42,515 nt of DNA, from the IMG/VR virus record IMGVR_UViG_3300019776_000970, positions 1 to 42,515 of that record; one strand, 5' to 3'. This document shows positions 3,352-38,491 of the stretch, piece after piece (position 1 is the stretch's first letter; every line of letters begins with the position of its first letter). The notes below the pieces were generated by a model. That model worked only from the letters and a program-made list of their open reading frames with translations, was not told the origin of the DNA and did no database searches. A program made the translations under genes and the position numbers. This DNA comes from a virus.

Positions 3352-5016
3352 TTACGAAAGAACCAGGTCCGCGTAGTAACGGGAGACGTTGCCGCTTAGC
3401 GTGCGAGTGAAGACGATCCGGTAGCGCCGACCGGCCACGAACGCGGAATCGGTGAGAGGCAGTGCCAGCTCGATCAGACCCTCATCCGCCAGCAGGGTCG
3501 TGATGTCGAGGTTGTCCTCGGCCACCGTGCTATCCAAGATCACCGTGCCAGAGAGGTCCTTGACCTGCGCCGTGAGGGTCGCCCCCGTGAGCGGGATCTT
3601 CTCCCCGGTGGCATCGACCAGGTTGCCCCGGATCGAGCCCGTGTCCCCCGCGATGGCCTGCACAATCCCCGCCGCGCTTGCCGAGCTGAGCTTGAACTGG
3701 AAAGGACCGCGGACCAAGAGGGTTGCGCTTCCGCTTCCCCCGCCGCCCGAGGGGGCGAGCTCCAAGGCATTGGCCGTGTACTGGTACACCGAGCCATCGA
3801 GGCCGATCATGGTAAGGAACCGCGCCGCCATGTTGGAGAGGTTGGCGGGGATGCCACTCCAGACAGCGGTCACAATGTCGGCGATCAGGGTGCCGAAGCT
3901 GGTGATGCTTCCAACAGCGCCCGTCACACTCCCAACAGCGCCTGTAACCGAGCTTGCTCGGACGCCATCGCCCGTGATAGTGCCCGTGCCTCCCCCAAGA
4001 ACTTTGCCCGAGACATCGCCTCCCACCCCGCCGACAACGCTCCCAACCGAGCCTGACACGCTGGCAACGCTCCCTGCGACACTCCCGGCAACTGAGCCAA
4101 CAGAGCCTGTAACGCTGCCCACTGCTCCTGTAACGCTGCCCACCGATCCTGAAACATTTCCATTGACATTTCCAACGAGGTTCCCTCCTACGTTCCCAGT
4201 GACGCTTCCCACCGCGCCCGTCACGCTGGGGACAGCTCCGGCGAGGTTTCCGGCGGTTAGGTTGATCTGGCCTGCACTTGTGCCGTACTGCACTTGCACG
4301 CGGCCCGAGCCATCGAGCACCATCGCCGAAAAGTTCGTCGGAAACGCCTGGTTGAGGCTATAGCCAGTCTTGTCGGCATTGGTGCCCACGGTCACTCGGC
4401 CTGTGCCATCAGTGGCCAGCTTGTTGGCTGGAGTTGCGAGGACTAGATCCGCAGGACTCTGCCCAGTCGCGTAGGCCCCCACCGTGACGTTGCCCGAGGC
4501 AAGGCGCGAGGTGATTGTCGCGTTGAGGTTATCGACAATTAGCTTGCCAATCGTGCTGGCCGTGGTGATGCCCGAAACGAGCTGGTGCCAGATCGCAAGC
4601 ACGCCCGCTGCGGAGAGGGCCACGGAATCAAATTTGCTGAGGCCCATCGAGGCGGAGTCGTCCGGGTTGTACGCCACGAGCTGGTAGTGAGCCGAGACCT
4701 CTTTGATACCTGCACCGCTGAACGTCACGATCACCTTGCGGCCCGTGTTTACGGCCAAGTTGGGTAGGTCAATCCGGTAGAGGCCGGGGACGAGAGTCTG
4801 GTCTACCTCACAAAACCCGCCATCAGCCCATGCGCCTGTAGGGGTCTGGGTCGCGAGATTGATCTGAACCGGAGCCGCTCGTTCTTTAGTGTAGTACGCC
4901 TTTAGGCCCGATGTGTTGTACAGCAGCCCTAGCATGGGGCCACCCGTAGACAAGTTGGAGATCTGGATGTACTCAGTCTGGGAGGACGAGCCAACTTTCA
5001 GTGTATCTTTGGCCAT
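3352..5016 (-). CDS. Tail fibre protein with Gly/Val/Ser repeat (554 aa)
   Basis: ATG overlaps the spike stop as TAATG. The N-terminal ~110 residues form a globular domain (KVGSSSQTEYIQI, then YRIDLPNL). Residues ~120-255 resemble a trimeric fibre region. Residues ~260-370 are a low-complexity repeat of units such as GSVTGAV, GSVAGSV and GNVNGNV. The C-terminal ~150 residues form another beta-rich domain (GRRYRIVFTRTLSG near the end) that may contact the host surface or pack as a sandwich. The GSVTG-type repeat is common in tail fibres of uncultured phages. Followed closely by the lysis genes. Confidence 0.8.
   Translation of the reverse strand: MAKDTLKVGSSSQTEYIQISNLSTGGPMLGLLYNTSGLKAYYTKERAAPVQINLATQTPTGAWADGGFCEVDQTLVPGLYRIDLPNLAVNTGRKVIVTFSGAGIKEVSAHYQLVAYNPDDSASMGLSKFDSVALSAAGVLAIWHQLVSGITTASTIGKLIVDNLNATITSRLASGNVTVGAYATGQSPADLVLATPANKLATDGTGRVTVGTNADKTGYSLNQAFPTNFSAMVLDGSGRVQVQYGTSAGQINLTAGNLAGAVPSVTGAVGSVTGNVGGNLVGNVNGNVSGSVGSVTGAVGSVTGSVGSVAGSVAGSVASVSGSVGSVVGGVGGDVSGKVLGGGTGTITGDGVRASSVTGAVGSVTGAVGSITSFGTLIADIVTAVWSGIPANLSNMAARFLTMIGLDGSVYQYTANALELAPSGGGGSGSATLLVRGPFQFKLSSASAAGIVQAIAGDTGSIRGNLVDATGEKIPLTGATLTAQVKDLSGTVILDSTVAEDNLDITTLLADEGLIELALPLTDSAFVAGRRYRIVFTRTLSGNVSRYYADLVLS
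3908..4240 (-). repeat. Imperfect short tandem repeat inside the fibre gene
   Basis: Reverse-complemented units of about 15-21 nt encode GSVTGAV, GSVTGSV and GNVNGNV-like heptapeptides, repeated about 15 times with interruptions. Runs such as actcccaacagcgcc and acgctgcccactgctcc recur on the given strand. Such repeats can expand or contract by slippage or recombination and so change fibre length. Confidence 0.8.
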
Positions 5017-6161
5017 TACTGCATCCCTCCATTCGTTCCGCCGTCAAAGAGATAGACCGTGCTCCCGCCTCCGCCAAACGCGGGGCAGATCGCGCCGACG
5101 TATCCCCCCTGAACACCCGTGCCGCGCAGCTTCAAACCATCCGTAGTTCCTGAAGGCGTGTAGTTGCCAGAACCAACAAACGGTGATGCAGAAAGTGTCT
5201 GAGGATCTCGTCCCGTTGTCCAGCCGACGCCCGAGACATTGCCTAAGCCTGCGCCACCCCACGCACAATCGACGATGGCAGGCTCAACGGCGCGGGTGCC
5301 TCCCACAAGGTTGTAGCCCCCATTGCCCCAGAAGGCACAATCGGTGATCAGCACGACGATGGAACCTGATCCACTAAGGCCAAGATCGAGCCCATCGCTT
5401 GTGTTATCAGCAAAGGTGCAGTGGTCAAACGTAAAATCAATGAAGGTGCGGTTCGAAACGTCTGCCTTTATGCCATCGCCTGCGTTACGGGTGATCTGAC
5501 AGTTCTTAAAAACGTTTGTCCTACTCGGGTTCGTGTTTGTGGTGTAGATAAGCCCAGAACCCGCGTTGTTGTCTATCCTACAGTCCAAAAAGGACCCGTA
5601 GGAAGACGCTTGCGGGCCGTTATAGGCGATGATGCCGCTGGAAGTAGAGTCATGGATATAGAGCTTCCTCCAACATCCCCACGTACCTAGTCGTGACGCA
5701 AAATCAATCGCGTTCAGGCAGCCTGCAATCTCAACGTTGTCGAGACATAGAAATGGGCCGAGTGTCCCCGCCCCGGTTGCTCCAGTAATCCCCTTGCCCC
5801 GCGTTGCCCCCGTGTGAGTCAGCTTCAGGTCGCAGAACTTGAAGAAGGTGGAGACAGTCCCCGCAAGGAAGTTGATAATGTTGACGGTAGTTGTGGCGCA
5901 ACTGATCTCCGCCACTCCTCCGTCACCCGCCGCCGATGTGTACCCCTGAATCACAGAGGCCAGCAAGCCTGTAGAGCCACCCATCGCGCCGGTCGGTTGT
6001 ATGGCTGTAGTTATCACGTGCTGGGCATTGTTCTTGAGGTTGATCCGGTCGGCGGGAGCCCAGACCGTCAGCGCTTTTGCCACGGTTTTATAAGGTGAGC
6101 CGATGGCTCCGGTTCCGGTCGTATCATCCCCGCCGGAATAGTCCACATACCACTCAGCCAT
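5016..6161 (-). CDS. Right-handed beta-helix tail spike / pectate-lyase-like protein (381 aa)
   Basis: ATG 6159-6161 overlaps the upstream stop as TAATG. The N-terminus (AEWYVDYSGGDD, then GSPYKTVAKAL) is the entry strand typical of parallel beta-helix proteins. From about residue 90 to 330 there are repeated turns containing Asn/Cys-rich elements (FKFCDLKL, LCLDNVEIAGC, FLDCRIDNNAGSG, FKNCQITRNAGDG, FDHCTFADNTSDG, ITDCAFWGNGG), which match right-handed beta-helix coils. It probably binds or cleaves host surface polysaccharide as part of the tail tip. Catalytic residues cannot be picked with confidence. Confidence 0.8.
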   Translation of the reverse strand: MAEWYVDYSGGDDTTGTGAIGSPYKTVAKALTVWAPADRINLKNNAQHVITTAIQPTGAMGGSTGLLASVIQGYTSAAGDGGVAEISCATTTVNIINFLAGTVSTFFKFCDLKLTHTGATRGKGITGATGAGTLGPFLCLDNVEIAGCLNAIDFASRLGTWGCWRKLYIHDSTSSGIIAYNGPQASSYGSFLDCRIDNNAGSGLIYTTNTNPSRTNVFKNCQITRNAGDGIKADVSNRTFIDFTFDHCTFADNTSDGLDLGLSGSGSIVVLITDCAFWGNGGYNLVGGTRAVEPAIVDCAWGGAGLGNVSGVGWTTGRDPQTLSASPFVGSGNYTPSGTTDGLKLRGTGVQGGYVGAICPAFGGGGSTVYLFDGGTNGGMQ

Positions 6162-6724
6162 TAGCGGCACGCCTCCACGTCAGCAGGTTCTAGTGCCAAG
6201 CCATCGGGGAAGAGCCGGTTACCCTGCCCATCCACCATCGCCTCTAGGGGGCAGGGGGCGCTCTCGTTGTGCGCTGGCTCGATGCGGGTGAGCAGCTCAT
6301 TGCGTTGCTGCTGCGTGGCAAAACTTGCCGCGACGAGCTGATCGGCAAGCCCGCGTAAGGTGAGATCCTCGGCAGGGTTGAGCACATCGGTATCGAGGGT
6401 CTTCGCAAGCTGCGCCCCGATCACAGAGAGCCACGTCTGAGCGGCGGCACTACCTTGCAGCGCCGCCGCCGTGATCTGGTTGATGGGGGTCGAGAGAAAG
6501 CGCTTCAGCTCAGTGCCTCGGAAGGTCCGCCAGACAACAGCCTGCTCGACCCAAACGACCTGGGGATCACGCAGGGCAACGAGCACCTCGACGGTGGTGA
6601 GACCGGAATACCGGGGCTTGGCGAGCTCCTGCGTGAGGGCAGCTACCTGCTCAGACGTGAGAGGGATGCTCTCACTCGCTAAGATCGCCTCAATGGTTGC
6701 TTCATTTCCGCCACACAGTTTCAT
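6161..6724 (-). CDS. Hypothetical tail-region protein (187 aa)
   Basis: ATG 6722-6724 overlaps the preceding stop as ATGA. The protein is mostly helical: an N-terminal ~60 residues with LTSEQVAALTQELAKP, a central segment with WVEQAVVWRTFRGTELKRFL, and a C-terminal region with a predicted strand (GQGNRLFPDGL). No catalytic or membrane motif stands out. It lies between the small membrane protein and the spike gene, so a tail accessory or fibre chaperone role is possible but unproven. Confidence 0.6.
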   Translation of the reverse strand: MKLCGGNEATIEAILASESIPLTSEQVAALTQELAKPRYSGLTTVEVLVALRDPQVVWVEQAVVWRTFRGTELKRFLSTPINQITAAALQGSAAAQTWLSVIGAQLAKTLDTDVLNPAEDLTLRGLADQLVAASFATQQQRNELLTRIEPAHNESAPCPLEAMVDGQGNRLFPDGLALEPADVEACR

Positions 6725-7041
6725 GTCGTTTCTCGCTTTTGGGTAAGGTGCTTTTGGGCTGTACTGAGGGGCCAGAGGGCCATACCAAGAGCAATGCCAC
6801 CAAGCAGCAGGGCAGTCTGCTTAGTGCGTGGGAACCAGTGTCCTGCCACCAGCCCCACGGCAATGGGCAACGGAGGCCACGCCTCGGCCACATCCCCTAC
6901 CAGCTCGCTGAGGGTGTCGGATCGCTGAGGGCGCACTACGGCAACCGCCTCGGCCAGCAGCCCCACGGCAAAGAGCACTCCCCAGGCTTGTCGCATCCGA
7001 TTGGTGGTAAGTCCGTGCGTCTTAGTGGTAAGTCCGCTCAT
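6721..7041 (-). CDS. Small membrane protein (106 aa)
   Basis: Three hydrophobic segments are visible: AWGVLFAVGLLAEAVAVV (about residues 19-36), PLPIAVGLVAGHWF (57-70) and ALLLGGIALGMALWPL (76-91). They are separated by charged loops, with a basic C-terminal tail (QKRETT end). Position between the tail hub and tail spike genes is compatible with a holin-like or superinfection-related membrane protein. The sequence gives no direct evidence for either. Confidence 0.55.
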   Translation of the reverse strand: MSGLTTKTHGLTTNRMRQAWGVLFAVGLLAEAVAVVRPQRSDTLSELVGDVAEAWPPLPIAVGLVAGHWFPRTKQTALLLGGIALGMALWPLSTAQKHLTQKRETT

Positions 7042-25482: not shown

Positions 25483-26154
25483 TTAATCCGGAGAATCAGG
25501 TGGCATGGGGACCGATCCCTTGCACTGAGGGTCCCTATCCGGGGCGTCGAGGATCAAATGAGCGAGGCGCTCACGTAGGAGAGCACGGCCTTGGGAGTCA
25601 ATCTGCTGGACCCGCGCCCGCGTCACCCCTATCTCGAGAGCAATCTCATCCAAGGTGAGGCCATCCAAGTAGCGCATCTCGATCACTCGGCGCGTGCGCT
25701 CTGGCAGAGACGTGAGTGCCTGGTACAGATCAAGATGGAGCTCAATATCATGGCAGTCTTGGGCAGAAACACTCTCTCCCAGTTCCTGAGGAGTCTCACG
25801 CACGATTTTACGCAAGGCATCCCGAAGGGCGGAGCGAACGCACTGATAGCACCATGTCCAGTAGCGTCCCTTGCTCGGCTCCCAACTCTCCAGAGCCTTC
25901 AGTACCCCGAGTCGAGCGTGCTGAAGGGCGTCCTCAAGCTCTAGCTGCTGATGCGAGATACGACACGCGCGGCGGGCTTGCGTACCCAAGAAGGGTTCCA
26001 ACGCGTCTAGGATCGCATCGGTGATCCGGTCTTGATAAGACGCACATCGTGGATCACGACGCCAGAGGGCCGCGTTCTCCAAGCCCCCGCTTGTCGGCGT
26101 GACCCAGACACGGTGTGGAGCTCCTCCACTTGAATTATGCAGCGAAGGGGGCAT
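25483..26154 (-). CDS. Phage-encoded sigma-70 family RNA polymerase sigma factor (223 aa)
   Basis: ATG 26152-26154 lies behind GGGAGG. Region 2 is recognisable at residues ~70-115 (EDALQHARLGVLKALESWEP, then RYWTWCYQCVRSALRDAL), the -10-recognition and core-binding helix set. Region 4 at ~residues 145-195 (LTSLPERTRRVIEMRYLDGL, then TLDEIALEIGVTRARVQQID) is the -35-binding HTH. There is no clear region 1 or 3. A phage sigma of this kind usually redirects host RNA polymerase to late promoters, here probably the packaging and structural operon. It lies just upstream of the terminase genes on the same strand. Confidence 0.85.
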   Translation of the reverse strand: MPPSLHNSSGGAPHRVWVTPTSGGLENAALWRRDPRCASYQDRITDAILDALEPFLGTQARRACRISHQQLELEDALQHARLGVLKALESWEPSKGRYWTWCYQCVRSALRDALRKIVRETPQELGESVSAQDCHDIELHLDLYQALTSLPERTRRVIEMRYLDGLTLDEIALEIGVTRARVQQIDSQGRALLRERLAHLILDAPDRDPQCKGSVPMPPDSPD

Positions 26155-27431: not shown

Positions 27432-28193
27432 TCATTCCAATCGTGCTTTGGCTACTTGGTGGTAGTGAGCGCTCTTCTCAATACCAAGGTAGCCAAGGCC
27501 CTTGCGCTTTGCCGCGAGGAGCGTGCTGCCTGAGCCTGCAAAGGGATCGAGCACGACCCCGCCCGGCTCCACAATCTGAAGCAGGTCTTCCATGAGTGCC
27601 ACCGGCTTGCCCGTCAGGTGCAGCTTCTCACCGGGTCTTTCCACCCCGTGGCGAAAGACTCCCGGTAAGGTAGACACACCCCGCTCGACCGGCATCTTGC
27701 CCTTGCTGCCCCAGACGATGTACTCCGCCTGGTGGGAGAAGCGCCCCTTCATCGGGCGGCAGCCACCGCCCTTGTCCCAGACCGCACACCCACGGCGGAT
27801 GAAGCCCGCGTGCTGGATCACATCCACTGTGGTGCCGATCTGTCGCCAGTCGGTAAAGATCAGGATCACCGCGCCCTCCGCCGCGATCCGGTGGCACTCA
27901 GCCAGCCAGCGGTAGCACCAGCTCGTGAAGGCTCGCTGGTCCATCGTGTCGCCGTCGAAGTCTTCCCAGACTAAGTGCTGCCCCCCTTGAACGTACTTCT
28001 CGCTAGGCTTACGGGCTCGATCCGAGGCACTCTGACCACCGGAGTTATAGGGCGGGTCCGTGATAATGGCTTGAACGGAGCCTGCGGGAAGCTGTGAGAG
28101 GAGCAGGAGCGCGTCGCCGTGAAGGACTTGGTTGGTAGGCAGTACTAGATAGGGGCTTGGTGGGAGCTGTGTGATCTCGTTTTTCTCTGTCAT
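27432..28193 (-). CDS. Site-specific DNA methyltransferase, beta-class N6-adenine/N4-cytosine (253 aa)
   Basis: An ATG (28193) is preferred to the GTG at 28208. QVLHGDALLLLSQLPAGSVQ precedes IITDPPYNSGG, which holds the DPPY catalytic motif IV. The target-recognition region follows (RWLAECHRIAAEGAVILIF, SHQAEYIVWGSKG). Near the C-terminus EPGGVVLDPFAGSGSTLLAA holds the AdoMet-binding FxGxG motif I. Motif IV before motif I defines the beta class. No restriction gene is adjacent, so it is probably an orphan methylase that protects phage DNA or regulates expression. Transcribed from a promoter at 28232-28260. Confidence 0.9.
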   Translation of the reverse strand: MTEKNEITQLPPSPYLVLPTNQVLHGDALLLLSQLPAGSVQAIITDPPYNSGGQSASDRARKPSEKYVQGGQHLVWEDFDGDTMDQRAFTSWCYRWLAECHRIAAEGAVILIFTDWRQIGTTVDVIQHAGFIRRGCAVWDKGGGCRPMKGRFSHQAEYIVWGSKGKMPVERGVSTLPGVFRHGVERPGEKLHLTGKPVALMEDLLQIVEPGGVVLDPFAGSGSTLLAAKRKGLGYLGIEKSAHYHQVAKARLE

Positions 28194-28231
28194 CCTGTCG
28201 GTAAACACCTGTTTTCTTTAAGATTAAGGTG

Positions 28232-28331: not shown

Positions 28332-29276
28332 CTATCCGACCAAAACCAGCTCCTCTTCAGCAGGTTTACTATCAGCATTTACCAGATCAACCAGCCTCGT
28401 TCGCATTTCTTCTTTATCAACAGCAGTTGCTAAATTTAACACTAAGGATCTATTTCTAAGCAACTTCAAAATCTTTTTTACCGTATCTTTATCAATTCTG
28501 TTCTGGCTAACGTGCACCAAAGATATTTTCTCTGAGATATCTTTTCGATTTCCAACGTGTTCAAATTTCCAAGCAGCAGACAAGGCGCTCCTATTCATAC
28601 TTGGATTGGAACTTGGTAAAGGAACAATTTCCACAACAACGGTGTCCGATGGCATTTCCATGCCATAAGAAAACGTGACATCTTCTTCATTCACGGGTAT
28701 TGAGTAATCTTTTTTTAATCTTGGGTTCTTAGACGTACCTACCTGCTTAAAAAGCTTAGATAATTCCCAATCAACTCGTTCTTTAGAAGGTTCCGTTGAC
28801 GCGGTATCCTCTCCTTCCAAAACAAAAATATCAAATAGATACTCACAAGCATCCTGATGAGATGCTATATCTTCTAAAAATCCTCCGGGGCTGAGCACAA
28901 AAGATTCATTAGAAAAATGTGAAAATTCAGCAAGAAACTCAACGGATCTTATCGGTACCAGAGTACCTCCTTTCAAAGGTTTTATCGCATCACCACTTAT
29001 TAGGAACCGCCATGTTTTTACCCAATGTGCATATATCTTCTGATTAAGAACGAATGAAGGTGGATTATCAAGAATACCCGGCTCATCCAAAGATTCACCG
29101 CGAAAACATGCCGATACACCTTCAGGTGACCAAACAAGCACTCCAATATTGCGAACTTCCTGACGCCAAGAATCTTGCACATACTGAATAAGCATGTACC
29201 GGGGACAAGTATTTCTTTTATCGTAAAAATCGGAGTACGATACCATATGATCAGAAACCCACTCGTCTTTGCTCAT
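28332..29276 (-). CDS. DUF3037-like protein paired with HipA-like kinase (314 aa)
   Basis: The start is 3 nt after the kinase stop. Near the N-terminus CPRYMLIQYVQDSWRQEVRN followed by IGVLVWSPEGVSACF matches the DUF3037 pattern (short tyrosine-rich strand, RxEV.NIGV). Residues ~75-200 contain a helical region (NQKIYAHWVKTWRFLISG). The C-terminal ~60 residues form a helix-rich tail (TVKKILKLLRNRSLVLNL). Base composition is much more AT-rich than neighbours, as is the kinase gene, showing that both came in together. From recollection of family neighbourhoods, DUF3037 proteins are often encoded beside HipA-family kinases. A partner or antitoxin-like role is inferred, not shown. Confidence 0.7.
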   Translation of the reverse strand: MSKDEWVSDHMVSYSDFYDKRNTCPRYMLIQYVQDSWRQEVRNIGVLVWSPEGVSACFRGESLDEPGILDNPPSFVLNQKIYAHWVKTWRFLISGDAIKPLKGGTLVPIRSVEFLAEFSHFSNESFVLSPGGFLEDIASHQDACEYLFDIFVLEGEDTASTEPSKERVDWELSKLFKQVGTSKNPRLKKDYSIPVNEEDVTFSYGMEMPSDTVVVEIVPLPSSNPSMNRSALSAAWKFEHVGNRKDISEKISLVHVSQNRIDKDTVKKILKLLRNRSLVLNLATAVDKEEMRTRLVDLVNADSKPAEEELVLVG

Positions 29277-29279
29277 TTT

Positions 29280-30134
29280 CTACACGTCCTTTGCGGTGAC
29301 GCCACCAATATTTGGCAATCCCCACTGATTTATATTCTTGAATTCATGTGAGTTATCCTGAATAAGATTCCACATCTTTCGCTTTCTCTTTTTAAGAAAG
29401 TCGGCTATGGCTATCCGTTCATCTTTATTTATGCCTATGTCAAACGGAACAAAACACAGATTATCAATTTGATAATCTGGCAAATTCTCAATCTTGTGAA
29501 TCCACTCTCCAAAAAACTTATCACTGCCGATGCAATCTAGGAAAACATGGCGATTATAGGGGAAACAACCTGATGGGAAATACTCTACAGAAACCAGCTC
29601 AGGTCCAGAGCATCCCAGCCGATCTTCAATATCTTTCAGGCGTGTAATTCCATAATTTGGAACTACTCCCAGTAGTGAATAGCCATGATCGTACAACCAA
29701 TAGTGGTCATCCTCGAGATAAGATATATTGCCTCCGTGCCTATCACCATTGCCCACAAATATGTCAAAAATTAGAGATCCACTACACTTTTTAAGTTGAT
29801 TTTCCAAGCAACTTTCGACATCGATGACTGGGCATCTTCCTCCATCACAGGCAAAATTAAAAGTAGTAAAATATGGACCGGGAGGCATAGCTCTCTCTAC
29901 TTGAATCAGCCCATGAGGGGATATAGGCAACCCCAAGTAATCAGCCAAACGAGTAGCAATATATTCGTTTGCCAAGGTCTGAATATAATCCCGCTTGTTG
30001 GGGCCAGGCTTCGCATACCCTCTGATCATCACCTGAAAAGTCCCGGTCACCCCATCGGTCCTAGGCTCTCCAGGTTTCGGCGTCTTGATGATTGCTCTGA
30101 AGGGAGTATTTTGATTTATACCAGTATCTGCCAT
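29280..30134 (-). CDS. HipA-like Ser/Thr kinase (284 aa)
   Basis: ATG 30132-30134 has GAAGG upstream. HipA_2-type kinase features are visible: TGTFQVMIRGYAKPGPNKRD near the N-terminus, where the usual strand lysine seems replaced by Arg; LANEYIATRLADYLGLPISP, carrying the conserved Glu; IFDIFVGNGDRHGGNISYL with catalytic Asp and Asn; and YWLYDHGYSLLG, a DFG-like Asp. Length is shorter than E. coli HipA (about 440 aa). HipA toxins phosphorylate glutamyl-tRNA synthetase, but other HipA-like kinases have other targets. The gene is AT-rich and the pair forms a cargo island in the lysogeny region. Confidence 0.8.
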   Translation of the reverse strand: MADTGINQNTPFRAIIKTPKPGEPRTDGVTGTFQVMIRGYAKPGPNKRDYIQTLANEYIATRLADYLGLPISPHGLIQVERAMPPGPYFTTFNFACDGGRCPVIDVESCLENQLKKCSGSLIFDIFVGNGDRHGGNISYLEDDHYWLYDHGYSLLGVVPNYGITRLKDIEDRLGCSGPELVSVEYFPSGCFPYNRHVFLDCIGSDKFFGEWIHKIENLPDYQIDNLCFVPFDIGINKDERIAIADFLKKRKRKMWNLIQDNSHEFKNINQWGLPNIGGVTAKDV

Positions 30135-30222
30135 ATTTGACCTTCACCCATGATATTAAAATGCAACACGTCTGCCACGCGTGCCATTTTCGTGGCATTG
30201 GTAACTAACCTTCCGCAAGCAC

Positions 30223-30618
30223 TCACGCGCCCCCAGCAAACAACCCCAACTCCGGCACTTGCTCCCACGCTTGGACGAGCAGCCTCTCCACATCCCGCGC
30301 CAGACGGTGGTGCTCCTCATCGACCGGCCCTTCGTAAAAATAGACCACGGGCTCTCCGCACAGCCACTCCCCTCGCGCTTGATGGAAGAAGAAGTGTGCC
30401 AGCTCGTGCGTGAGAGCCTGCGCCTGCTGCACTCGCGAGTAAGCGATGTTGTAGTAGATGGTCCATGTGTCCCGCTCCTCATCGTAGGCAAGCCGCCCTC
30501 GCCCTTCCCCTGGCCGGTAGAAGGGCACCATCCCGATCCCGAGGCCCTGCGCCACGCTCACCCACGTCTCCGGGGCGTGTAGCTTCCGATCCCCCGCAAG
30601 CCGCTTGAGCTCTCCCAC
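30223..30618 (-). CDS. ImmA/IrrE-like metallopeptidase (131 aa)
   Basis: GTG at 30616-30618 is the first usable start. The frame is open further upstream to 30796 without a start codon. The key motif is QALTHELAHFFFHQ, an HExxH zinc site, after AETWVSVAQGLGI-like and YRPGEGRGRLAYDEERDTW segments, and followed by a EEHHRLARDVERLLVQA helix. ImmA-type proteases cleave a cognate XRE repressor after DNA damage and trigger induction. The repressor here is 2 kb away, separated by three cargo genes. Size matches the short, catalytic-domain-only phage form. Confidence 0.8.
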   Translation of the reverse strand: MGELKRLAGDRKLHAPETWVSVAQGLGIGMVPFYRPGEGRGRLAYDEERDTWTIYYNIAYSRVQQAQALTHELAHFFFHQARGEWLCGEPVVYFYEGPVDEEHHRLARDVERLLVQAWEQVPELGLFAGGA

Positions 30619-31027: not shown

Positions 31028-31768
31028 TTACCGTCCCCGTCCCCGTCCTCGGCCGGAGCTTCGCGATGTCGAACTCTTGGTTCCAGGAGCGCTTCGTGTG
31101 TGCGAACGAACATACGTGCCGTCTTTGCGATAGTAGCCATTTACGTGCACGGGACCGTGGTAGCTCAACTCTGGGCGTGAGGGCGAAGTAGAACTGCCAG
31201 CGGCAATGGGCTCCCAACCAGCAACGCGAACCCGAGTAGATGCAACGCTAAACTCTTGCCCCGATTGTGATCGTAAAAAAAGTGCCTTGAGTTTCCCACG
31301 GTTAGACTCAATGCGAGTAGTACCGATCCAAGTGGCTCTTGATGGAGAAAACAAGTAAACCACGTAGTTCGGTGCTTCTTCAGAGCCATTATCTGCTATC
31401 ACCTTTTCTACAAACGCAGTGATATCGTCGTCCGCTAAGGGAGTGGCTGAACCAGATACATTTACAATTTGTGCCCGCGAAATGTTTTCTGCTAAAGACT
31501 GTCCTGATAAAGGAATTCCTTTGATTTTCACTTTGCTTGTGGTCGAGGTAAATACCCACGCAGGTATCTGTTTCCCCGATGCTACTCGTTGCTGAATCTC
31601 CTCGATCCCACCAACTCCAGCAGGAACCACGAGCATTGTTACCTGTCCCGCAGGTGCTCCAGATGCATCTTCTAGAGTGAATTCAACACCATCGTTCTGT
31701 CCTTTTGAGCACCCCAACACAAGAAATGCTAAAAGGAAAGTAATGAGAAAACGCGCATGCCGGTACAT
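31028..31768 (-). CDS. Lipoprotein with C-terminal GYYRKDGTYV motif (246 aa)
   Basis: ATG 31766-31768 (MYRHARFLITFLLAFLVLGC) carries a lipoprotein signal, with LVLG-C as lipobox and Cys20 as the acylated residue. A GTG at 31783 would add five residues. Residues ~30-190 form a beta-rich domain (GVEFTLEDASGAPAGQVTML, NYVVYLFSPSRATWIGTTRI). The C-terminus has VHVNGYYRKDGTYVRSHTRS, a motif frequent in small secreted bacterial proteins, and ends in an Arg/Gly repeat (GRGRGRGR) encoded by a tandem ggacgg repeat. Surface-exposed cargo, possibly affecting the lysogen's envelope. Confidence 0.7.
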   Translation of the reverse strand: MYRHARFLITFLLAFLVLGCSKGQNDGVEFTLEDASGAPAGQVTMLVVPAGVGGIEEIQQRVASGKQIPAWVFTSTTSKVKIKGIPLSGQSLAENISRAQIVNVSGSATPLADDDITAFVEKVIADNGSEEAPNYVVYLFSPSRATWIGTTRIESNRGKLKALFLRSQSGQEFSVASTRVRVAGWEPIAAGSSTSPSRPELSYHGPVHVNGYYRKDGTYVRSHTRSAPGTKSSTSRSSGRGRGRGR

Positions 31769-31818
31769 TCTTAATGTGTCCACCTTTGTTTATTCTTCAG
31801 CGCCTCAATACCATGCTT

Positions 31819-31850
31819 GCGTTAGCAAAGCGTTAGCAAAGCGTTAGCAG
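31819..31850. repeat. 11-bp tandem repeat GCGTTAGCAAA (about 3 copies)
   Basis: GCGTTAGCAAA (31819-31829 and 31830-31840) is followed by a partial third copy, GCGTTAGCAG (31841-31850). It lies in the 127-nt gap between the lipoprotein start and the end of the zinc-ribbon membrane gene, in the likely promoter region of the lipoprotein. One turn of the helix per repeat suggests an operator, or slippage. Confidence 0.75.
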
Positions 31851-31895
31851 CTCTTCTGGCCGCTTTGTAGGAAAGAACATGAGCGCCCCTCGCTA

Positions 31896-32570
31896 CTATC
31901 GTTGAGGCATGACTCCCTGAAGCGCCTCTGCGGCTCCTATGCCCATGGCCCAAACAAGAGCAAGCAGGAAGATGACGATCCAAACAATCCCTGCTGCAGG
32001 ACCGGATTTTGTCCGCTCACCCCGCATGAACATATAGACAGGAAAGAGGAAAATCGCCGCGACGGCTAACCCCTCAGTCTTAAACCCCGCGTTTTTCACC
32101 TTATCGATGTCCACCGCTATAAAAATGACATTCAGAACAACAGTCACCCACCACAAATCACTGACTTTCATTGAAAGTGGGCCGGAGAGCGCCAGTTCGA
32201 CAGCTACCCCAATCAAGGGCAGAAATGCCATCGTCCAAAACACACTGTTGTCAATCTGTCGGTAAGCTTGGGGATCTTCCCCTGCCATAGGGAGATCGCG
32301 GCCACAGTAGCGGCAAACCTTGGCCTCGGCCTTGATAGTCTCAGCGCAGAAGGGACACGCTTTTTCGCCTGAAGTTTGAAGGCGCGATCTCAGTAAAGCG
32401 AAGGTTGGTTTTAGATAGATCGACTGCTTTGCTACTAGCTCTGCACCATTCTCTTCATCTATCAGAATGGTGTCTTCGATGATAAGACCATCCTCAACCC
32501 ACTTGATTAATTGGCTGTTTTGCGTAGCATGTCGAATTGATCCATCAGTAAGCGTCACTTTTATTTTCAA
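31896..32570 (-). CDS. Zinc-ribbon membrane protein (224 aa)
   Basis: Residues 1-60 (MKIKVTLTDGSIRHATQNSQ, LIKWVEDGLIIEDTILIDEE) resemble a GYF-type or regulator domain. A zinc ribbon follows (ACPFCAETIKAEAKVCRYCG), then four hydrophobic segments (FWTMAFLPLIGVAVELALSG; LWWVTVVLNVIFIAVDI; GLAVAAIFLFPVYMFM; AGIVWIVIFLLALVWAMGIG). Mixed soluble-ribbon-membrane proteins of this kind occur widely in bacteria with unknown role. In this phage it is a likely lysogenic cargo gene beside the repressor. Confidence 0.65.
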   Translation of the reverse strand: MKIKVTLTDGSIRHATQNSQLIKWVEDGLIIEDTILIDEENGAELVAKQSIYLKPTFALLRSRLQTSGEKACPFCAETIKAEAKVCRYCGRDLPMAGEDPQAYRQIDNSVFWTMAFLPLIGVAVELALSGPLSMKVSDLWWVTVVLNVIFIAVDIDKVKNAGFKTEGLAVAAIFLFPVYMFMRGERTKSGPAAGIVWIVIFLLALVWAMGIGAAEALQGVMPQR

Positions 32571-32581
32571 CTACGGATCTC

Positions 32582-33130
32582 CTACTCCTCAGGCGGTTTC
32601 CCTTTAAGTCGATCAGCTTTCTTCCCTACAATGTCAGTACGCAGCTCGTACATGGCATCGAGCATCGCCTCGGTCTGCTCGGTGATCACCGCTTGGATCT
32701 TCAGAGGCAGCTTGTCATAAGCCGCGACCATCCGCATGCGTATCTCTTCGCCCGTGTCATCTTCGGGATCGCGAATACGCTCGATACGCTCCTCGGTGTC
32801 GTGTTTGGGAGTTGGTTGCCGCTGAAAACCAAAGCCTTCTACGGTCGGATAGCCCGCCGCTTCAAGAAGAGGGTTGGGGTCGATTCGATACCCGAGCGCA
32901 AACCGCAGGATTATCGGCTGGGATACTCGATCCCCTTGCCACATCCTGATTACGGTGTCGTGGGAAATCCCACCGCGCCGAGCGGCGACACGCGAAGCGA
33001 CTTCACCTGTCACCTCCCGCACTTTTTTTGCGAACTCTGGATACGCGCCAACGATTTCCGGCAATGAAGCCATAGCTGGCATACTCGCCCTCCCAATCAT
33101 GGGGGTGTTAACCCAATACCCTTGTGTCAT
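32582..33130 (-). CDS. XRE-type phage repressor (182 aa)
   Basis: ATG at 33128-33130 has GACAGGAGC at 9-nt spacing. An inner ATG (MASLPEIVGAY) is possible but has no such site. The N-terminal ~85 residues form the HTH (HDTVIRMWQGDRVSQPIILR, FALGYRIDPNPLLEAAGYP). A charged linker (PKHDTEERIERIRDPEDDTG) leads to a C-terminal helical domain (AAYDKLPLKIQAVITEQTEA). It is divergent from the rightward early genes across a short operator region, as a CI/ImmR-type repressor should be. It has no LexA-like peptidase domain, which fits control by the ImmA-like protease. Confidence 0.75.
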   Translation of the reverse strand: MTQGYWVNTPMIGRASMPAMASLPEIVGAYPEFAKKVREVTGEVASRVAARRGGISHDTVIRMWQGDRVSQPIILRFALGYRIDPNPLLEAAGYPTVEGFGFQRQPTPKHDTEERIERIRDPEDDTGEEIRMRMVAAYDKLPLKIQAVITEQTEAMLDAMYELRTDIVGKKADRLKGKPPEE

Positions 33131-33138
33131 TATTCCGC

Positions 33139-33255
33139 GCTCCTGTCAGTTTCTCGACAGACAGACGTACTTCTTACAAAAAAGTTACGTCAGAACATTG
33201 ACACTGTCTACGTTCTTACGCTAACATTGATTGTAAGAAGTTCGACGACAGGAGC
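33139..33255. promoter_or_regulatory. Divergent control region with nested inverted repeats
   Basis: The 131-nt region between repressor and early genes has two nested inverted pairs: GCTCCTGTC (33139-33147) with GACAGGAGC (33247-33255), and ACTTCTTACAA (33169-33179) with TTGTAAGAAGT (33231-33241). A third TTCTTAC lies at 33213-33219 and AACATTGA is repeated at 33194 and 33223. These are likely repressor operators, and the outer repeat supplies a matching Shine-Dalgarno site to both genes. Confidence 0.75.
33198..33227 (+). promoter_or_regulatory. Putative rightward early promoter (PR-like)
   Basis: TTGACA (33198-33203) and TAACAT (33222-33227) stand 18 nt apart, with the TTCTTAC operator half-site lying between them, so a bound repressor would block it. 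Transcription would begin near 33234 and lead into the gene at 33262. Confidence 0.65.
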
Positions 33256-33261
33256 CCTTTC

Positions 33262-36925: not shown

Positions 36926-38491
36926 ATGACCGCACCCCGAACCACAAAACCAGATGATGAAGCAGGGCCAAAGCATACGGAAGGGCCACTGCTCAAAGAA
37001 CTTCCCCTCGCCAGCCTACGGCCCTCAGACTTCAATCCCCGCACACGCTTCGACCAAGAGGCATTGCTCGAGCTAGCTGCATCGATCAAAGAACAAGGCG
37101 TGCTTGAGCCCATCCTTGTACGTGCCCGCCTGGACCTGCCTCTTTCGGATCAGGGGCGCATCTTTGAAATCCTTGCAGGTGAGCGTCGCTTCCGTGCAGC
37201 CCAACTGGCAGGCATCGATACGATCCCCTGCCTGATCCGCGTTGCCGATGATAACGAAGCACGGATGATCGCCGTCACGGAGAACCTTCAGCGCAAGGAC
37301 CTCGATCCACTCGACACTGCAAGAGGCTACCAGATCCTCAAAGCGGGAGGGATGCCTCAGGACCAGATCGCCGCAAAGCTCGGAGTTTCCCCCGGTGAGG
37401 TGAGCAAGAGCCTGGTGCTCCTGCACACTCCCGATCTCGTTCAGGACCTGCTCCGCCGTGGCCAGCTCGCCCCTAGCGCTGCCCGCATCATCCAGATGAA
37501 GTTTGGCAAGTTTCCCGCCTTTGTTGAAGCTTTCGCCCAACATGTCGCCACCACTGGAATGAGCATGCGCGAGCTGGAGGAGGCTCTGGGCCCCAAGGGA
37601 CGTGTTCCCTACTCCTTCACCTACAAAATGCCCGATACTGCGGCCCGGCGGGTTGAGTGGAATACCCCCTTCAAGGCTGAGTGTGGCCAGTGTCCCCATG
37701 GCGCTCTCTATGGTGGGGACCTCTGCTTAATGCCCACTGAGTTCGACCGCAAGATGGCCGAGCACAGGGCCAAGGAGGAACAAGAAGCCCGCACCTTAGC
37801 CGCCAAACTCAAGGCGCGGGGCAAGGCACTTCCCATGTCAGGGGATAGCCAGAGTCCTCAGCCAGAGCCTACGCTTCCTGTGCTGGGTAAAGACCTCAAG
37901 TACGGTCAGTACGAGCAGCTCTACGGCAAAGCTCCGGCAGGGTGCTCCGAAGAGTGTGAGTGCCGCTGCGCCGCCTTAGACGGTAAGCGAGTCGTGCAGA
38001 TCTGTCTTGATCCCAAGAAACTCCAAAGATGCAAAACCGCTGAGACTAAGGCGCAGAACAAGCTCGCCAAGGAGGCAGGTAAGGCCCGGATCAGGCAGAT
38101 ACTAAAGCTCCAGCACACCGATCGCGAGAGTATGGGCCGCTCCTACGCTATGGCTCTAAGAGCACTGTTAGCAACCGCTAGCACTGAGGCCCGGCGAGAG
38201 GCGCTTCCCATGCTCCCAACGGCTAGCGAACTGGATATCGTGCGTTCCAAGTACTTCGCTACCATCCGCGCTGCCTTCGATAGCAATGGCACCTCTGGCC
38301 CGTGGGAGCAGATCCAAGCCAAGCTGGCGGAGGCTATGGGAACAATCACTCCCATCGAGCGCAACCAGGTGTTTCTGGCGGCCGCGAGCGCGGTGGGAAT
38401 CTATAGCACGAACAAGCAGATCGCGGAGCCCCGTCACTATACGGCCCCGGAAGCTCGCTTTCTGCTCGGAGAGGTGGAGGCTATCCGATGA
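36926..38491 (+). CDS. parB-like: ParB/RepB/Spo0J-family DNA-binding protein (521 aa)
   Basis: ParBc N-terminal domain at residues ~20-125: LKELPLASLRPSDFNPRTRF, then FEILAGERRFRAAQLAG (CTP motif GERRFR) and AVTENLQRKDLDPLDTARGY (second CTP motif ENLQR). The HTH at ~145-165 (MPQDQIAAKLGVSPGEVSKS) and a following helix (GQLAPSAARIIQMKFG) should bind the parS palindrome. The C-terminal ~300 residues are an extra module with a Cys cluster (CGQCPHGALYGGDLCLM, CSEECECRCAALDG) and long helices. No Walker-type ParA gene is seen in the window. Four exact TTTCCACGTGGAAA sites are likely targets. Possible roles are partition through a host ParA, silencing or DNA organisation. Confidence 0.85.
   Translation: MTAPRTTKPDDEAGPKHTEGPLLKELPLASLRPSDFNPRTRFDQEALLELAASIKEQGVLEPILVRARLDLPLSDQGRIFEILAGERRFRAAQLAGIDTIPCLIRVADDNEARMIAVTENLQRKDLDPLDTARGYQILKAGGMPQDQIAAKLGVSPGEVSKSLVLLHTPDLVQDLLRRGQLAPSAARIIQMKFGKFPAFVEAFAQHVATTGMSMRELEEALGPKGRVPYSFTYKMPDTAARRVEWNTPFKAECGQCPHGALYGGDLCLMPTEFDRKMAEHRAKEEQEARTLAAKLKARGKALPMSGDSQSPQPEPTLPVLGKDLKYGQYEQLYGKAPAGCSEECECRCAALDGKRVVQICLDPKKLQRCKTAETKAQNKLAKEAGKARIRQILKLQHTDRESMGRSYAMALRALLATASTEARREALPMLPTASELDIVRSKYFATIRAAFDSNGTSGPWEQIQAKLAEAMGTITPIERNQVFLAAASAVGIYSTNKQIAEPRHYTAPEARFLLGEVEAIR

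What the first reader, a model, noticed from the sequence alone, without database searches (positions are those of the whole stretch)
28332..30134. AT-rich cargo pair: HipA-like kinase plus DUF3037-like protein
Both genes are strikingly AT-richer than the rest, lie 3 nt apart, and sit between the methyltransferase and the ImmA-like gene. The kinase keeps NGDRHxxN and YDHG motifs but its usual nucleotide-binding Lys seems to be Arg. A two-gene kinase/partner module in a prophage is a good candidate for a toxin-antitoxin or anti-phage defence system expressed in the lysogen.
Basis: partly seen in the sequence, partly recalled or inferred. Interest (0 to 1): 0.85.

Follow-up and report, generated by a model that had tools for sequence, protein, structure and literature searches.

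The report
Phage-borne HipA-like kinase/DUF3037 defence pair
This phage genome carries an imported two-gene unit, a HipA-like kinase and its DUF3037-type partner, that belongs to a recently tested class of anti-phage toxin-antitoxin systems and that in many other phages sits right behind the repressor gene kept on in dormant phage, where it probably protects the infected bacterium from rival phages.

Summary
In detail: two complete genes, 3 nt apart, GC 0.43 and 0.40 in a 0.60 genome, between a DNA methyltransferase and an ImmA-like gene. They are a divergent HipA-like kinase plus DUF3037-family protein. One detail is wrong: the nucleotide-binding lysine is not replaced by arginine. It is Lys42, invariant in 35 of 35 aligned kinases.

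The pair is a recurrent unit. In viral contigs, 50 of 77 testable NxDRH kinases have a DUF3037-like gene directly downstream, and the two proteins co-diverge (Mantel r 0.91). The closest relatives are an environmental phage pair and pairs in temperate Gordonia phages ZiggyZoo, EMsquaredA and Marteena. Published relatives (PDC-M66; DS-6/HipAD; the pair beside Retron-Sda1) are anti-phage systems in which the kinase is needed for defence and loss of DUF3037 is toxic.

New here: 25 of 46 distinct viral pairs lie downstream, same strand, of a repressor-type gene (CI in most of those typed), the position of lambda rexAB; an E. coli lambda-like prophage shows it exactly. The window pair is in a same-strand run headed by a repressor-like gene. 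No integrase was found, so lysogeny here is inferred. Best reading: lysogen-expressed HipAD-like toxin-antitoxin defence.

The parts
29280..30134 (-). HipA-like Ser/Thr kinase gene (284 aa), first gene of the pair; predicted toxin/effector
   Evidence: E 4.8e-19 to profile of DUF3037-paired kinases; fold: CtkA, HipT
28332..29276 (-). DUF3037-like partner gene (314 aa), second gene; predicted antitoxin/sensor
   Evidence: 14.3 bits; E 3e-7 to L156 partner; group hhalign 95%
30009..30011 (-). codon of Lys42, the conserved nucleotide-binding lysine (motif GYAKP)
   Evidence: invariant in 35/35 kinases; aligned with YILKP of HipT(Lp)
29727..29744 (-). catalytic loop D131-R-H-G-G-N136
   Evidence: D131, R132, H133 and N136 invariant in 35/35
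29688..29690 (-). metal-binding Asp149 of the YDHG motif
   Evidence: invariant in 35/35
30150..30178 (-). weak sigma-70-like promoter match just upstream of the kinase
   Evidence: 9 of 12 matches; 6 such sites found against 4.8 expected in the scanned region, so not significant
30223..30618 (-). ImmA/IrrE-like (Peptidase_M78) gene, upstream neighbour on the same strand
   Evidence: PF06114 22.2 bits, HELAH motif; a metalloprotease gene also neighbours the pair in Gordonia phage EMsquaredA
32582..33130 (-). repressor-like HTH protein heading the same-strand run that contains the pair
   Evidence: phrog_3949 transcriptional repressor E 0.0023 only; no Pfam match
33131..33261 (.). divergent intergenic region with operator-like repeats (TTCTTAC/GTAAGAA)
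   Evidence: 3 of the 4 copies of this 7-mer in the 42.5 kb window lie in this gap; inverted repeats
27432..28208 (-). solitary DNA methyltransferase gene, downstream neighbour (context)
   Evidence: PF01555 118.5 bits; phrog_67

Best explanation
The pair is a phage-carried HipA-like kinase/DUF3037 module of the PDC-M66 / DS-6 (HipAD) kind. Shown here: homology of both proteins to that kind, a co-diverging recurrent two-gene unit, intact kinase motifs, foreign base composition, and a position in a run headed by a repressor-like gene, which is typical for such pairs in other phages. Inferred from published relatives: in the lysogen the DUF3037 protein holds the kinase inactive; infection by another phage disturbs this hold; the freed kinase phosphorylates an essential host target and growth stops before the invader completes its cycle. 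The kinase's target, the trigger, and expression in this lysogen are not shown.
For: Kinase: profile E 4.8e-19, hhalign 98.8-99.5% to DUF3037-paired kinases against at most 2.8% for shuffles, CtkA/HipT fold, K42, E57, D131, N136 and D149 invariant. Partner. Unit: 50 of 77 kinases followed directly by a DUF3037-like gene, most overlapping by 4-8 nt; Mantel r 0.91, 0 of 2000 permutations. Function of relatives: kinase deletion abolishes defence against Bas51 and DUF3037 deletion is toxic (PMC12548924); a kinase-site mutation abolishes DS-6 defence and AlphaFold3 predicts a kinase-partner complex (PMC13092281). Lysogenic position: 26 of 46 distinct pairs have a repressor-type HTH gene within 1.5 kb, 25 of them upstream on the same strand, random expectation 15%; several are CI (HTH_3 plus Peptidase_S24) with divergent Cro; E. 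coli ES2 lambda-like prophage; ZiggyZoo immunity repressor-kinase-partner.
Against: The window pair is remote (about 22-28% identity to its nearest relatives) and below the Pfam cut-offs; PADLOC gives PDC-M66A only at E 0.04 and no PDC-M66B. The experimentally tested systems could not be placed in the trees made here and may be in other clades. No integrase or clear CI was found in the record. Toxicity and defence of this clade are untested.
Confidence: 0.68

Rival explanations
1. Pure addiction or stabilisation module: a toxin-antitoxin pair that keeps the phage genome in the cell (for example a plasmid-like prophage) without an anti-phage role.
For: Same two-gene toxin/antitoxin logic; the window has a ParB_N/HTH_ParB gene and no integrase, which could mean an extrachromosomal prophage; relatives occur on a plasmid.
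Against: Relatives tested in E. coli protect against phage; more than half of the phage-borne relatives sit in repressor-type immunity regions, the usual place of lysogen defence genes.
Confidence: 0.13
2. Lysogeny-switch kinase: the kinase and partner regulate the phage's own repressor or induction rather than attacking other phages.
For: Adjacent to repressor and ImmA-like genes; a Pf prophage kinase module controls lysogeny as well as defence (PMC11341870, title and abstract).
Against: The same pair is found on a plasmid and in published defence settings. A CI 90% identical to that of L100 carries other cargo genes in another E. coli prophage, so the pair is not a fixed part of the switch.
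Confidence: 0.1
3. Lytic host-takeover kinase, or another phage function with a HipA-like fold unrelated to DUF3037 systems.
For: HipA-like kinases lie in late-gene regions of some gut phages ('Gratiaviridae', PMC8008677); the partner match is weak when taken alone.
Against: Group profile match and co-divergence of the partner; gene order identical to DUF3037 pairs; foreign base composition as in cargo genes.
Confidence: 0.09

Closest known systems
DS-6 / HipAD and PADLOC PDC-M66 (HipA-family kinase + DUF3037), including the pair beside Retron-Sda1
   Same: Two adjacent genes, HipA-like kinase and DUF3037 protein; kinase catalytic residues kept.
   Different: Window clade is remote, below PADLOC and Pfam cut-offs, and phage-borne in a run headed by a repressor-like gene; not tested experimentally.
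Gordonia phage ZiggyZoo gp42-gp41 and EMsquaredA gp41-gp40 (annotated serine/threonine kinase + hypothetical protein)
   Same: Nearest named relatives, with the environmental phage pair in L156; same gene order; in a temperate-phage immunity region next to repressor, metalloprotease/HTH and integrase genes.
   Different: Only 22-25% identical. In the window the ImmA-like gene is upstream of the pair, not downstream, and no integrase was found.
Lambda cI-rexAB and Gordonia CarolAnn 43/44
   Same: Two-gene defence cassette co-oriented behind the phage repressor; position matches many DUF3037 pairs.
   Different: Unrelated proteins: RexA-like (DUF4747) plus a membrane protein, no kinase.
HipBA and HipBST toxin-antitoxin systems
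   Same: Same kinase superfamily; kinase toxin with a partner encoded beside it.
   Different: Antitoxins HipB/HipS are not DUF3037 proteins (established knowledge); here the kinase gene comes first and the partner is a 314-aa protein.

Membership tests
HipAD / DS-6 / PDC-M66 | HipA-family kinase with complete catalytic residues | tested here: met
   K42, E57, D131, N136 and D149 invariant with 34 relatives; profile E 4.8e-19
HipAD / DS-6 / PDC-M66 | adjacent co-oriented DUF3037 partner | tested here: met
   3 nt downstream; homology by group profile hhalign 95%, E 3e-8, though the single-sequence Pfam match is below cut-off (14.3 vs 22.6 bits)
HipAD / DS-6 / PDC-M66 | recognised by PADLOC models PDC-M66A and PDC-M66B | tested here: inconclusive
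   M66A E 0.041, M66B none. The models also score weakly on an annotated HipA/DUF3037 pair (Rahnella kinase M66A 0.044), while the L156 kinase reaches 4.9e-8
HipAD / DS-6 / PDC-M66 | DUF1829 domain in the partner (reported for DS-6B) | tested here: not met
   no DUF1829 match in the window partner or in six relatives; it is not reported for the Retron-Sda1 pair in the passages read, so it may not be a defining feature of the whole class
HipAD / DS-6 / PDC-M66 | kinase toxic without the partner; kinase-dependent protection from phage | not testable with these tools
   needs expression and plaque assays
HipBA type II toxin-antitoxin | small HTH antitoxin HipB encoded directly upstream of the kinase | tested here: not met
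   upstream gene is ImmA-like; the partner is DUF3037-like and downstream
Lambda RexAB-type exclusion | RexA/DUF4747 protein plus membrane protein RexB | tested here: not met
   partner matches DUF3037, kinase HipA-like; only the genomic position is comparable

The most novel reading that the evidence does not exclude
The window, L156 and Gordonia pairs form a separate, repressor-linked branch of kinase/DUF3037 systems. In it the partner is a degenerate PD-(D/E)XK-like protein that reads DNA or DNA-end signals, and the kinase couples detection of an invading phage to the prophage's own repressor/ImmA circuit, so that defence and induction are one switch.
Probability: 0.12. Interest if true: 0.75.

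Novelty: new member of a known kind. Interest (0 to 1): 0.5.

Why it matters
It ties a recently tested defence class to the repressor operons of temperate phages. Many phage-borne kinase/DUF3037 pairs occupy the lambda rexAB slot, and a near-identical CI carries different cargo in another E. coli prophage. That makes prophage-encoded HipAD-like defence directly testable in cultured Gordonia phages and in a lambda-like E. coli prophage, and shows that PADLOC and Pfam cut-offs miss divergent phage-borne members.

Tried and rejected
Direct searches with the two window proteins found no relative in 2.9 million viral contigs or in phage records, and one remote kinase without partner on a plasmid; the genome-contig scan with the kinase found none. 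An alignment-based scan and a fragment scan also failed. My first motif pattern had the wrong spacing (9 instead of 12 bases), so one search is void. The strict NGDRHGGN pattern found nothing in genome contigs, so cellular genomes were not surveyed. The genome search refuses relatives of a virus record. CarolAnn 43/44 was considered as a relative of the Gordonia pair and rejected: RexAB-like, no kinase. The partner's AlphaFold model is poor (pLDDT 60, pTM 0.40); its PD-(D/E)XK-like Foldseek matches are kept only as a lead, since no conserved (D/E)xK motif appears in the aligned region and the profile finds no solved structure. An E. coli match for the L040 cassette was sought and not found.

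Full report
Observation. Both ORFs are real, complete and 3 nt apart on the minus strand: kinase 29280-30134, partner 28332-29276. GC is 0.426 and 0.397, GC3 0.404 and 0.327, in a 0.603 window whose other genes mostly have GC3 of 0.60-0.78; the AT-rich block has edges near 28200 and 30200. This suggests imported cargo. A DNA methyltransferase lies on one side and an ImmA/M78-like gene on the other.

Kinase. Pfam gives HipA_C and HipA_2 just under cut-off and PHROG 3162 at E 1.7e-12. A profile built from viral kinases that are followed by DUF3037 genes finds the window kinase at E 4.8e-19, with no other window protein near. The AlphaFold model (pLDDT 69, pTM 0.72) matches CtkA and Legionella HipT kinases in the PDB, as does the sequence profile. 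R38 lies four residues before and was probably mistaken for it. The enzyme looks active.

Partner. Alone it matches only the first 26 positions of DUF3037 (14.3 bits, cut-off 22.6). The motif (D..R.E.RNIGV) recurs in its nearest relative L156:6584-7336 (E 3e-7) and, slightly varied, in Gordonia phage ZiggyZoo gp41 (E 9e-5). The four-member group aligns with the main DUF3037-like set at 95% probability (E 3e-8), against at most 1.2% for shuffled sequences.

Recurrent unit. A motif scan of viral contigs gave 120 loci and a second added 18 new ones. Of 77 kinases with room downstream, 50 are followed directly by a DUF3037-like gene, usually overlapping by 4-8 nt. Kinase and partner distances correlate at r 0.91 (0 of 2000 permutations, 39 pairs), and both trees put the window nearest L156 and the Gordonia phages, with modest support and long branches. 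A Rahnella plasmid carries the pair as 'HipA family kinase' plus 'DUF3037 domain-containing protein'.

Position. In ZiggyZoo the order is immunity repressor, kinase, partner, HTH genes, integrase; in EMsquaredA kinase, partner, metalloprotease, HTH, integrase. Kinase and partner occur together in the same three of 50,697 phage records. L156 has an HTH gene, then the kinase and partner. Across 46 distinct viral pairs, 26 have a repressor-type HTH gene within 1.5 kb against 15% for random placements in the same loci (binomial P about 1e-10), and 25 of the 26 are upstream on the same strand, 18 within 150 nt. Caveats: contigs are not independent, and the HTH profile was seeded partly from genes upstream of such kinases. 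Of ten HTH genes typed, five are CI-type (HTH_3 or HTH_31 plus Peptidase_S24) and two divergent ones are Cro. E. coli ES2 has an exact lambda-like layout: CII, an HTH gene in the Cro position, an XRE-family repressor in the CI position, kinase, DUF3037, then gam-bet-exo. Five other E. coli genomes carry a repressor 90% identical to that of L100 without the pair; in the one examined, two other small genes follow it. This slot seems to exchange cargo.

In the window the pair is part of a same-strand run from a repressor-like gene (32582-33130; weak match, E 0.0023) down to the methyltransferase. The divergent gap above it holds three of the window's four TTCTTAC/GTAAGAA 7-mers, as expected of an operator region. 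No integrase was found and the record may be incomplete, so lysogeny is inferred.

Function of relatives. In the Retron-Sda1 operon, deleting the HipA kinase abolishes defence against phage Bas51 and deleting DUF3037 is toxic, while retron parts are dispensable (PMC12548924). DS-6, renamed HipAD, defends E. coli, needs the kinase site, and its two proteins are predicted to bind each other and DNA (PMC13092281). The same mechanism is the most likely for the window pair: partner restrains kinase; infection frees it; growth stops. Trigger and target are unknown.

Lead, not finding. The partner's C-terminal half is modelled with helix-strand-strand-strand-helix-strand order, and its Foldseek matches are mostly PD-(D/E)XK-type nucleases (Can2, Card1, Bax1, XisH). 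The model is poor (pTM 0.40) and no (D/E)xK motif is conserved. If real, it would be a dead nuclease fold, in keeping with the predicted DNA contact of DS-6B.

Verdict. A divergent, phage-borne member of the kinase/DUF3037 (HipAD) defence class, probably expressed in the lysogen.

Noticed in passing
L161 (E. coli ES2) 3778-6764; L162 (E. coli 2018-10-1CC) 4141-6220: Cargo exchange behind the repressor: ES2 carries the kinase/DUF3037 pair behind its XRE repressor, while a prophage with a repressor about 90% identical to that of viral contig L100 carries two other small genes (WP_016247090, WP_016247089) in that slot, possibly another defence cassette.
   Followed up: partly
window 31028-32570: Second, milder AT-rich stretch (GC about 0.50): a lipoprotein-like gene (31028-31783) and a zinc-ribbon protein (31896-32570) between the repressor-like gene and the ImmA-like gene; likely further cargo.
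   Followed up: no
window 36926-38491: ParB_N plus HTH_ParB protein (521 aa) and no integrase found in the record; could fit a plasmid-like prophage or an incomplete record.
   Followed up: partly
L043 and L078 (same contig IMGVR_UViG_3300045011_000017): Several NxDRH kinase motifs in tandem on one viral contig.
   Followed up: no
window 28332-28820 (C-terminal half of the partner): Low-confidence model with PD-(D/E)XK-like topology but no conserved (D/E)xK motif; may be a dead nuclease fold.
   Followed up: partly
window 25483-26154: Phage-encoded sigma-70-like factor (regions 2 and 4) just upstream of the terminase genes; may direct late transcription.
   Followed up: no
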